NCBI GenBank assembly: GCA_029448655.1 | Contig: JACCLO010000011.1 | Location: forward strand, 2,356,001-2,420,000 | Reading direction: 5' to 3' | Origin: Wolfiporia cocos | Lineage: Eukaryota > Basidiomycota > Agaricomycetes > Polyporales > Phaeolaceae | DNA: 64,000 nt | Part shown: positions 32,803 to 36,397 of the stretch, in pieces | Layout: every line of letters begins with the position of its first letter | Position numbering within the stretch: the stretch's first letter is position 1 | Translations under genes and position numbers: made by a program | The notes under the pieces: generated by a model | The model's database searches: none | Seen by the model: the letters and a program-made list of their open reading frames with translations, nothing else | Told to the model about the DNA's origin: nothing

Positions 32803-33605
32803 TCGGCACCAGCGGCAAAGGACGTGGGTCGCGAACGGATTGTGGTGGCGGTGAGATGGCTCCATTGGGGGCGAGGCCGTACAATATCTAAGCATTGGAC
32901 CTAGGGTTTTAGCTCAAACATTTTCAGTAGCATTACATAACATCTACGTATGTCATCGCCATATGTTGTATGAGGATCGCATTAGATTATAACAGTATTA
33001 TGACGGTATGACAGCGTCTGTACTCACATTGGACTGTTGGAAACGAATGGTTGGGATGTCGCAGAAAATCAGACAAGCTTCAAGTCAGATGTGTGAAGGG
33101 ACAGTCGGGCGCCGCCGTCGACCTGCACGCGTGCAGACTTCATATACCAGGTGCCGTTGAAGTTTCGGAATATATATGAAGGGCGCTTAGCGTGTGAAAT
33201 CAGTATCGAGAAGTTTTTGATCGCCCGAAAAGGAAATTGGCGCTGTGGCGCCACTAGCGCGCCACAACTTCCAACATGCTCGAGCAGGGATGTTCATCCT
33301 CGGTGATATGCAAAGCACAGATCACCGTAGCAGGGCCATATTACATCTAAATATCCATCAATTAGGAGAGTGGTTCTCTATCACATCACAGTTCTACTGC
33401 ATTCGTACGGGCACCAAGTTTGCTCCCACACTGGCGGGCTCAATCGCATACCTGGCACCCAAGCTCGATATTTCCCTCCCGCGTGAATGTAACAATATGA
33501 TCTATGGATGACGCATGTCATTCAAGGGCGCGCGTAACGCAGAGAAGGAACACCCACCCCCGAGGGCACGACTGGTGAAGCCTATCTCACAATATGCGCT
33601 GGTCG
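32803..33605. other. Convergent intergenic region
   Basis: 800 bp between the ends of two converging genes. AT-rich near 32.9-33.0 kb. No coding signal supported. Confidence 0.5.
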
Positions 33606-36397
33606 TTAGCATACACGTAGCGTGATGGTAACAGTCAGCGAAAAAGTAGGAAGACGCAGAGTGGTGTGTAGCGTAGTATGGGACAGTATGCAGAACACGT
33701 TAGTGTAAAGATCAGTCAGTTTTCTATCAAAACACCAATACAAAGTAGTAGGATATACGCACAAGTAGTATACCCACTTCCGCCCAAACATCTCCACCTC
33801 CTGGTCGCACATTTTCGGATGTTCCTCTCTCAGCGCTGTTCCAACCGTTTACCAATCCCGTCAGCTTGTCTTGCTCTCCGCTACGTACAGAATACCATGC
33901 GACGGATCTCACGACACAGATATAGCGAACTCACCTGGGGCGATCCATGCATCGAATCGCCTCTCGAATCGCGACCGCCACGTACGCAGGGTACGCGCGT
34001 AGTGCGGACCAATATTCTCCACGCCCTCAACGACGAGCCGGCCCTTTGCGCCAGCGGTCATTGATGCTACAAGCAGCGCAAGTGTCGGGAGGAAGCCTCC
34101 TGGGAATACTGAGCGGATGATGGCAACAATGAGTTCTTCAGTCCACAGTTAAAAGTTCGAACTTACTCTGCATATAGATTACATAGCGGAGGCGAACGGT
34201 TAAGAATCGAGAAGACGAGAGTTGGTATGAAATGATGGTGGATACATACCCATTTCCGGAGGAAGTCCGTATCATTGACGTACGAGTCGAACCCTATGGT
34301 GAGCACAGTCCATCAATCGGTAGACATGCAATAGAAGGAAGGATTGAAGGGCGACTTACGTGCCTCGGGGAGAGTGATACTCTGTACAACGCCCGCACCT
34401 GTGTCCGGCTTAAGAGCCCAGTCAATCTGCGACCAGTACGTCTGTCCCGCAAGCACGCAGTCAGTTGTGAAAACATGAACACAAAAGACTAAACTGTGCG
34501 AAAGAACCAATCCGCGAGGATGGACATTCCTCCTCCACCTTCCTGTCCCTCCTTCTCCGACTTGCAGCTCACTTCCCACTGCGGAGATCGTAGATGGCAA
34601 AAATGAGATAAGCCCACTCACTTCCAGCCCATCCTTCCCAACAGCCTCGACCATCTCAACGCTCACCACGCGGTCAAACCTGCCCGCCCACTCCGCCGGC
34701 ATCGCGCGAAAGTCGAGCAAATGCACGCGCACCGTGCCGCGCCGGTCCTTCCCCTCCTCCATCTCTCTCTCCATACCCACGCAAGATGCTCCATTCCTCC
34801 CAGGCTTGTTGGAGGGGGGCGACGTCTCGCAGAACCCGCCGCACGTCCAGGAGCCCGGCTCCTCACCGTACCCCTCACCGTCCGCGTCGAGCCCCGCCGC
34901 GCGCACCCGCTCGCGCGCCAGGGATGCCTGCTCCTCGGAGAGCGTGAGCGTGTCGATGTGTGTGCGCGGGATCGTGCCCGCGATGAGGAGGGCGAGCGAG
35001 CCCCAGCCGGTGCCGATCTCTAGGACCTGTGTGGCACGTGGGTGTGGCGCATATGTGTGGCACGAGCGTCGCATGTGGCGCGGGATCGGGCAAGGTGTAC
35101 GGAGAATGCAGAGCGAACAAGCGCAGTAGCAAATTGGTTCACGCAGGAAGTAATATCATCAGCGGCGCGATCGAAGGAAGTATGAGAGAAGAGACGAACC
35201 CGATGCCCCGGACGGATATCCGCGCGCCGTATGATGTGCCTCAGCTTGCGCATCTGCGCATCGTGCAGCGCACGCTCCTCCTCGTCCTCCTCGTTTTCCT
35301 CTTCTTCGTCGTCCTCAGCTTCGTACCCACCAATAAAGTCCTTTCCGGGCTCCTCGCCCTCAAATGACTGGCTGGGGCGGCCGTTCGCTTGCGCATATGT
35401 GTTCGCAGAGCTAGGAGCGTGAGCAACAGCCTCAGCGTAACTATATGCGCCTGGAGGCCGGCTCGCCCTCTGGGGCGTACTGTTCCAGGGAAAATCGTGC
35501 CCTCCACTCGTAGGTGCAGAGGATAAGCTCGATGCATGCGACGTTGACGTGAGGAACGAGCGGTACGTGTATAGGTCTCCGTCGAGCTCAGGATAGATTG
35601 CACACGAGTATGTCATGTCGCGGGAGAGGAACGCTAGCGGAACAAAGTTAGCTAAGCTATATCGCCGATGTTTGATCGAGGCAAGGGAAGGCGGACAAGC
35701 AAATATACAACATGCGAGAGATATTTATCACCTACCCGAAAACATCGCGTTACTGATGTCATAATGCGCACTGATGTTTTGACGAGCTGTGGCAAGCGCG
35801 TCCACGACGCGCGCGGAGAAGAAGGATAGAGATGGCTGAACGAAGAGCTTAAGGCGGCCAGAGCGTGTCAGCGGCGACTCGAGCGCGGTAAGGCACGCGC
35901 GGTTCGCCAGCAGCAGCTATATATGCAGTCAAATCAGACCTCGATTGCAAATATTGTGTCGTAGTGATGGATGAAAACGCGCCTGAAAGAGGGCAATGAG
36001 GTCGGGACAGTCGACCTCGCCGTACACATATGCCTCCGCGAAGCCAAGGTCGCCCATCATTGCGACGCGAAACCAGAACCTCGGGTCTGCGACCTTCAGC
36101 TCCGCCGAGAGCATACTTGCATCCGCAGCCGCATCAGAAGCTGGATGGGACGGGAAGACGTGCACACCAGAAGGTGTCTCGATGGTGAGCTTTCCATGGG
36201 ACAAGTGAGACAGAGCCCTATATGCGGTGTAGTCAGCGAATAAGAGAGGACCGGTCACAAATGGATGAGAGGTGAATGCACTTTACGACGGCCTTCTCAC
36301 TGAAGGAGCAGGCTGTACTAAGAACCGCGAGCGCGGTTGGGATCAACACTCGTTCCTGCACGGAGGACCATGTTCGCTGCATGAGTGGGGTGGACAT
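33606..36397 (-). CDS. cfs1: Cyclopropane-fatty-acid-synthase-like methyltransferase (Cfs1-like)
   Basis: Ten exons: 36282-36397, 35983-36217, 35736-35916, 35200-35633, 34622-35026, 34360-34441, 34250-34293, 34167 (one base), 33935-34108, 33606-33835; 633 aa. The family uses S-adenosylmethionine to methylenate unsaturated acyl chains of phospholipids; the Coprinopsis cinerea member cfs1 is needed for fruiting-body initiation (established knowledge). Seen: GKLTIETPSG, GDLGFAEAYVYGEVDCPDLI, AHYDISNAMFSAFLSRDMTY, SAM-binding VLEIGTGWGSLALLIA, FDRVVSVEMVEAVGKDGLE, FDSYVNDTDFLRKWIFPGGF, and GRKWVYYL near the end. Two insertions enlarge it: about 105 mostly acidic/Ser-rich residues before the SAM site and about 45 within the Rossmann fold. 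Introns at 34442-34621 and 35027-35199 are unusually long for this window. C-terminal 40 residues are less certain. Confidence 0.9.

What the first reader, a model, noticed from the sequence alone, without database searches (positions are those of the whole stretch)
34109..34249. A predicted exon of exactly one nucleotide in the Cfs1-like gene
On the minus strand, exon 7 ends at a TGG codon followed by gtatgt. 82 nt later comes a good acceptor (TATATGCAG), then a single A at 34167, then a perfect donor (GTAAGT), and 58 nt later an acceptor (CGCTCAG) followed by TATTCCCAGGAGG. Splicing both introns joins TGG-A-TATTCCC and gives RKWIFPGGFLPTLA, which is the conserved family sequence. Skipping the single base shifts the frame, and no other acceptor/donor pair restores it. 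One-nucleotide exons are extremely rare in any eukaryote and are missed by gene finders.
Basis: partly seen in the sequence, partly recalled or inferred. Interest (0 to 1): 0.88.

Follow-up and report, generated by a model that had tools for sequence, protein, structure and literature searches.

The report
One-nucleotide exon in mushroom cfs1 gene
A fatty-acid-modifying gene of a wood-decay mushroom very probably contains an exon of one single letter, squeezed between two ordinary introns; gene models of many other mushrooms go wrong at exactly this point, which suggests that the tiny exon is old, widely shared and usually missed.

Summary
On the minus strand TGG is followed by an 82-nt intron, one A (34167) and a 58-nt intron, giving RKW-I-FPGG in a complete 12-exon, 615-aa Cfs1-like ORF. 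The claim that no other splice pair restores the frame is wrong: a donor four bases on gives RKW-VL-FPGG, as in the closest public model (Wolfiporia cocos MD-104). Comparison speaks against it. One residue precedes FPGG (or its equivalent) in 18 of 18 transcript-like proteins, 26 of 26 outgroup models, 17 bacterial genes and 3 paralogues. Of 141 listed agaricomycete genome models, 86 carry an insert exactly here and 10 are otherwise broken; at other positions where transcript-like and outgroup sequences never vary, at most 4 of 140 do. All 86 inserts end in L, I, F or V, as expected if one base is missing at the join. One-nucleotide exons are known (plant APC11 and VPS55, Fusarium CYP621A), so this is a new member of a known kind; my searches listed none in a basidiomycete. 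Class-wide conservation is inferred, since no DNA of other mushrooms and no RNA of this species could be read.

The parts
33440..36397 (-). Cfs1-like (cyclopropane-fatty-acyl-phospholipid synthase family) gene, 12 coding exons, 615 aa
   Evidence: PF02353 CMAS, E 5.2e-52
34250..34293 (-). exon 7, ends ...RKW (TGG)
   Evidence: spacing RKW|IFPGG
34168..34249 (-). intron 7, 82 nt, GTATGT...TATATGCAG; loose branch-like CTTAA/TTAAC 32-33 nt from the acceptor, no strict CTRAY
34167..34167 (-). exon 8: the single nucleotide A, first base of the Ile codon ATA of RKW-I-FPGG
34109..34166 (-). intron 8, 58 nt, GTAAGT...CGCTCAG; loose branch-like CTGAA 29 nt from the acceptor, no strict CTRAY
33935..34108 (-). 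exon 9, begins TA-TTC-CCA-GGA-GGC (second and third bases of the Ile codon, then FPGG)
34109..34245 (-). rival single intron with donor +4 (GTATCC...CAG), giving RKW-VL-FPGG, the reading of the public W. cocos MD-104 model

Best explanation
The Cfs1-like gene has a constitutive one-nucleotide coding exon (A, 34167). Two short U2-type introns, 82 and 58 nt, lie one base apart. Each is recognised across the intron, as is usual in fungi (general knowledge), and they are removed one after the other, because the two splice sites around one base can hardly be occupied together. If the 58-nt intron with its GTAAGT donor goes first, the 82-nt intron is left with a normal acceptor followed by ATATTC; if the 82-nt intron goes first, TGGA|GTAAGT is left as a normal donor. 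Either order gives TGG-ATA-TTC (W-I-F). Shown: the sequence, the frame, the spacing in relatives, the site-specific failure of gene models. Inferred: that this species' mRNA contains the A, the sequential removal, and that most agaricomycetes share the arrangement.
For: The ORF is complete only with the A or with poorer sites; of 31 open single-intron models none has GTRNGT plus YAG. Transcript-like proteins (sources lgn/jgi, which I take as Logan and JGI contigs): 18 of 18 have one residue, I, between W/Y and FPGG; for P0110, P0125 and P0173 the longest contig leaves at most 183, 199 and 129 nt besides the CDS, too little for the gene's introns. Tremellomycetes 19 of 19 and Pucciniomycotina 7 of 7 have one residue. 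Three paralogues uninterrupted at this site and 17 bacterial genes have the same spacing. Of 141 listed agaricomycete genome models 62 carry one extra residue, 24 more than one, and 10 have no recognisable join; in 58 of the 62 the first residue is V or A (GTN/GCN, the donor read as a codon), and in 62 of 62 and 24 of 24 the last is L, I, F or V (NTN codons). In a positional control the two neighbouring gaps at this join hold inserts in 46 and 41 of 137 models (87 different models), against at most 4 of 140 at any other gap where transcript-like and outgroup sequences have none. A Ganoderma-like transcript-like protein (P0013) reads W-I-FPGG while two Ganoderma genome models, 89% identical to it, read W-LI-FPGG and W-LNFAV-FPGG.
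Against: No RNA of this species was seen. No genomic DNA of another agaricomycete could be read, so the two-intron structure elsewhere is inferred from protein models. For 15 of the 18 transcript-like proteins the RNA origin is likely, not shown. Fourteen agaricomycete genome models read W-I-FPGG and 31 W-V-FPGG without an insert; how those genes are built was not seen. Neither intron has a strict CTRAY branch site, which 6 of the 9 other introns of the gene have. The A at -1 of the downstream donor is not the commonest base there (general knowledge). The 141 models come from three capped hit lists and are related to each other, so the Fisher p-values overstate the independence.
Confidence: 0.92

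Rival explanations
1. One 137-nt intron with the donor shifted by four bases (34245-34109): the protein reads RKW-VL-FPGG, with one extra residue.
For: In frame; the closest public model, W. cocos MD-104, and 27 other agaricomycete models read WVLFPGG.
Against: Donor GTATCC is poor beside GTATGT four bases upstream. The extra residue is absent from 18 of 18 transcript-like proteins, 26 of 26 outgroup models, and the 17 bacterial genes and 3 paralogues read. Models of different species use different fillers at the same join (VL, VI, AI, VF, longer), which looks like gene finders coping with a frame gap.
Confidence: 0.04
2. One 140-nt intron with a non-canonical, one-base-shifted boundary (TA-AG or GT-CA), so that a G is kept and the protein reads RKW-V-FPGG.
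For: Correct spacing and a conservative residue; 31 of 45 insert-free agaricomycete models read V, and 2 of 17 bacterial genes have V.
Against: The 12 transcript-like proteins that I assign to agaricomycetes all read I (0 V of 12 against 31 V of 45 genome models, Fisher p 1.4e-5; the sequences are not independent). Such boundaries are almost unknown for U2-type introns (general knowledge). V is what results if a read aligner lays the extra transcript base against the neighbouring G, so this class may be another symptom of the missed exon (inference).
Confidence: 0.02
3. Sequencing error or pseudogene: one base was lost in the assembly or in the gene, and there is one ordinary intron.
For: Formally, a missed one-base exon looks the same as a one-base deletion.
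Against: The W. cocos MD-104 model shows the filler expected from the same frame gap, and models of many other species are disturbed at the same join; the rest of the ORF is intact over 12 exons; a consensus acceptor and donor flank exactly one suitable base.
Confidence: 0.02

Closest known systems
Fusarium CYP621A one-nucleotide exon (Nelson and Syed 2026, PMC12940212; parts 1 and 2 of 3 read)
   Same: One base between two introns in a fungal gene, required for frame inside a conserved motif; judged partly by an uninterrupted homologue; gene models mostly wrong.
   Different: Ascomycete P450; exon base G (AGGGT); confirmed there by RNA reads. Here basidiomycete cfs1, base A, no RNA of the species, wider apparent spread.
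Plant APC11 and VPS55 one-nucleotide microexons (PMC4674806, part 1 of 3; PMC8831610, passages)
   Same: Single base between two introns (A in APC11); deep conservation in land plants; missing from reference annotations; short-read mapping poor unless the exon is supplied.
   Different: Plants; unrelated genes; tested by RT-PCR and, for APC11, reporter constructs.
Fungal mitochondrial rnl one-nucleotide exon between group II introns (PMC12308204, passages)
   Same: Single A between two introns in a fungus.
   Different: Mitochondrial group II introns, not spliceosomal.
Spliceosomal twin introns (stwintrons; search listing only)
   Same: Adjacent fungal introns that need consecutive splicing.
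   Different: One intron interrupts a splice element of the other and no exonic base lies between; no such reading of this site keeps RKW and FPGG.
Zero-nucleotide recursive splice sites (recalled, no call)
   Same: Acceptor abutting a donor; sequential removal.
   Different: Here one coding base remains in the mRNA.

Membership tests
Constitutive single-nucleotide exon (APC11/CYP621A kind) | One base flanked by a canonical acceptor (AG) and donor (GT) | tested here: met
   GCAG-A-GTAAGT at 34171-34161, minus strand
Constitutive single-nucleotide exon (APC11/CYP621A kind) | Base needed for frame and for the conserved residue | tested here: met
   the residue spacing
Constitutive single-nucleotide exon (APC11/CYP621A kind) | Uninterrupted homologues show the length | tested here: met
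   3 paralogues and 17 bacterial genes, all with one residue; in the other 17 of the 34 bacterial loci the pattern was not found in frame
Constitutive single-nucleotide exon (APC11/CYP621A kind) | mRNA of the gene contains the base | not testable with these tools
   No RNA of this species found; relatives' transcript-like proteins agree in spacing, 18 of 18
Constitutive single-nucleotide exon (APC11/CYP621A kind) | Same two-intron structure in orthologous DNA | tested here: inconclusive
   Only protein models available; of 141, 86 have inserts and 10 are broken at the join
Stwintron | Internal intron splits donor or acceptor of an external intron, with a productive mRNA | tested here: not met
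   Two nested readings stay open and keep FPGG, but both remove exon 7 with RFDSYVNDTDFLRKW; branch-site-split forms were not enumerated
Cfs1 / CMAS family protein | PF02353 and similarity to fungal Cfs1-like proteins | tested here: met
   PF02353 E 5.2e-52; best hits are agaricomycete Cfs1-like proteins

The most novel reading that the evidence does not exclude
The one-nucleotide exon of cfs1 arose in the ancestor of the Agaricomycetes, or very early among them, has been kept in most mushroom-forming orders ever since, and is missed or papered over in most public gene models of this gene, including the models that read V by taking the neighbouring G.
Probability: 0.7. Interest if true: 0.78.

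Novelty: new member of a known kind. Interest (0 to 1): 0.66.

Why it matters
[quoted passage not shown] A case in basidiomycetes, in a gene reported to play an important role in Coprinopsis fruiting-body development (PMC5769442, passages), would show that fungal splicing copes with them over long times. It would also mean that about two thirds of the agaricomycete models listed here (96 of 141) carry a false residue or a broken join beside a conserved motif. The signature used (inserts confined to one join in genome models and absent from transcript-like proteins) could be scanned for in other gene families to find further tiny exons.

Tried and rejected
Searched for agaricomycete genomic DNA to read the join directly: viral contigs with a 168-aa query (none) and with alignment A1 (one 32% relative, L057, not pursued); genome contigs (34 loci, all titled as bacteria). 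No metagenome scan was allowed. A DNA search of the own genome gave one place, the gene itself; a protein search gave more distant paralogues.

Looked for similarity between the two introns as a sign of tandem duplication: local score 7, reached by 164 of 200 shuffles, so none seen. Looked for the strict branch motif CTRAY: in neither of the two introns, in 6 of the 9 others. Enumerated nested (stwintron-like) readings: two stay open and keep FPGG, both by losing exon 7.

The first classification script miscounted some rows, because its pattern caught an earlier Arg/Lys pair; one search replaces it. The 'plus1' totals printed (4 and 66) also took in labels such as plus17; the counts used here (62 with one extra residue, 24 with more, 86 in all) were recounted. 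Clades were assigned by me from the organism names in the hit tables, and the 12 transcript-like proteins taken as agaricomycete by their similarity; no tree was built.

Paper searches for such exons and for cfs1: 'single-nucleotide exon' (14 papers), '1-nt exon' with microexon (0), 'one-nucleotide exon' (2), cfs1 with cyclopropane fatty acid synthase (4), Coprinopsis with cfs1 and exon (2), '1-bp exon' (1), micro-exon with basidiomycete and 1 bp (0), six synonyms (4), a combined search (8). None of the listings pointed to a basidiomycete case; most papers were seen as listings only. Passages were read of PMC5769442, PMC7552465, PMC8831610, PMC12308204, PMC8208691 and PMC4014442; none gives the structure of cfs1. 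I recall an original Coprinopsis cfs1 paper of 2006, which was not seen, so I cannot say whether its authors noticed the exon.

Full report
What is there. The region was read on the minus strand. TGG at the end of exon 7 is followed by GTATGT; the 82-nt intron ends in TATATGCAG, then comes one A (34167), then GTAAGT, and the 58-nt intron ends in CGCTCAG before TATTCCCAGG. A full gene model built from the sequence has 12 exons between 36397 and 33440 and a 615-aa ORF. The product matches PF02353 and agaricomycete Cfs1-like proteins, best Wolfiporia cocos MD-104 with 96% identity to residues 310-610, so the window most likely comes from a Wolfiporia/Pachyma species (inference). Without the A a stop follows 13 residues after the W.

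Alternatives. GT/GC-AG introns of 40-300 nt between 34293 and 33935 were listed. Thirty-one single-intron models stay open; none combines a GTRNGT donor with a YAG acceptor; four keep FPGG, and the nearest (34245-34109) gives RKW-VL-FPGG. Of 1104 open two-intron models four have consensus sites at both introns; all use the single A, and one keeps IFPGG. Nested, stwintron-like readings with a split donor or acceptor: two stay open and keep FPGG, but both delete exon 7.

Length of the protein at this point. Three searches returned 185 distinct proteins (the tool lists only the best 120 of each). I sorted them by source and, from the organism names, by clade. Eighteen come from sources lgn or jgi without an organism name; 18 of 18 have exactly one residue, I, before FPGG. 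For P0110, P0125 and P0173 the longest contig leaves at most 183, 199 and 129 nt besides the CDS, which cannot hold the introns, so these are almost certainly cDNA; for the other 15 this is likely but not shown. Nineteen of 19 tremellomycete and 7 of 7 pucciniomycotine models have one residue too. In contiguous DNA, three paralogues in the same genome (L021 twice, L022) and 17 bacterial genes have one residue (15 I and 2 V among the bacteria). In the other 17 of the 34 bacterial loci the pattern was not found in frame, and two further pattern matches were noise.

Genome models of agaricomycetes. Of 141, 45 have one residue (31 V, 14 I), 62 have one extra, 24 have more, and 10 have no recognisable join. 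Fisher test of inserts, 0 of 12 agaricomycete transcript-like proteins against 86 of 131 resolved models: p 7e-6; the species are related, so this overstates independence. A profile of the 18 transcript-like sequences was used as a ruler along the protein, leaving out about ten positions at each end: the gaps W|I and I|F hold inserts in 46 and 41 of 137 models, 87 different models. Eight other gaps hold inserts in 20 to 122 models, but there 2 to 10 of the transcript-like sequences vary too. Among gaps where neither transcript-like nor outgroup sequences have an insert, the next highest counts are 4 of 140 and 4 of 135. The site is singled out.

What the inserts say. If TGG is followed by a donor GTNNGT and the next exon begins with TH (H = A, C or T) after a missing base, a gene finder can use the GT at positions 5-6 of the donor. 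It then writes GTN (V) or, for a GC donor, GCN (A), followed by N-T-H (L, I, F, V). Among the 62 models with one extra residue, 58 begin with V or A and 62 end with L, I, F or V; all 24 longer inserts end so as well. The W. cocos MD-104 model reads VL, exactly what the present DNA gives with the +4 donor. The V-only class is what a one-base-shifted boundary gives. The 12 transcript-like proteins that I assign to agaricomycetes read I, against 31 V of 45 insert-free genome models (p 1.4e-5), so V may often be an alignment artefact, though in single species it may be real. For plants it is reported that reads around a one-nucleotide exon are poorly mapped unless the exon is supplied (PMC8831610, passages).

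How it works. Both introns have donors, acceptors and lengths like the nine others of the gene (56-180 nt), but only loose branch-like motifs; strict CTRAY is found in 6 of the 9 others and in neither of these. They can each be recognised across the intron. Occupation of both sites of a one-base exon at once is implausible, so removal one after the other is the best account; the order is not known. This step is inference.

What is known. A constitutive one-nucleotide exon was shown in Arabidopsis APC11 (PMC4674806), conserved ones in plant APC11 and VPS55 (PMC8831610), and one in Fusarium CYP621A, called there the first for a fungal gene (PMC12940212); a single A between two group II introns is described in a fungal mitochondrial rnl gene (PMC12308204). 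The paper searches named in Tried and rejected listed none in a basidiomycete. Cfs1 is described as playing an important role in fruiting-body development of Coprinopsis (PMC5769442, passages).

Verdict. The one-nucleotide exon is very probably real (0.92). It is a new member of a known kind, with strong indirect signs of class-wide conservation (0.7). The decisive data, RNA reads of this species and the DNA of the other genomes, were out of reach.

Noticed in passing
35917-35982 (minus strand): The second intron is modelled with a GC donor (gcgcgt...atatag), which gives the spacing LFQ|LLLANR seen in relatives.
   Followed up: partly
L021 (G000:C67:659500-665500) and L022 (G000:C12:4572500-4577500): Three more distant CFA-synthase-like paralogues, two of them on opposite strands about 2 kb apart, uninterrupted at the site of the one-nucleotide exon.
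   Followed up: partly
33440-36397, compared with P0001: The public W. cocos MD-104 model lacks VDCPDLIALFQ and 78 of the 144 residues of the present exon 4, so it is probably mis-spliced at two further places.
   Followed up: partly
protein models P0042, P0059, P0067, P0097, P0108, P0157: These read W-AI-FPGG, which suggests a GC donor after TGG in these species.
   Followed up: no
protein models P0122 and P0133: These join the exon before RKW directly to FPGG, that is, they skip the neighbouring exon, perhaps as another way round the frame gap.
   Followed up: no
L057:81-1175: A contig of the viral collection (IMGVR_UViG_3300043418_000298) encodes a 32% identical relative of Cfs1.
   Followed up: no
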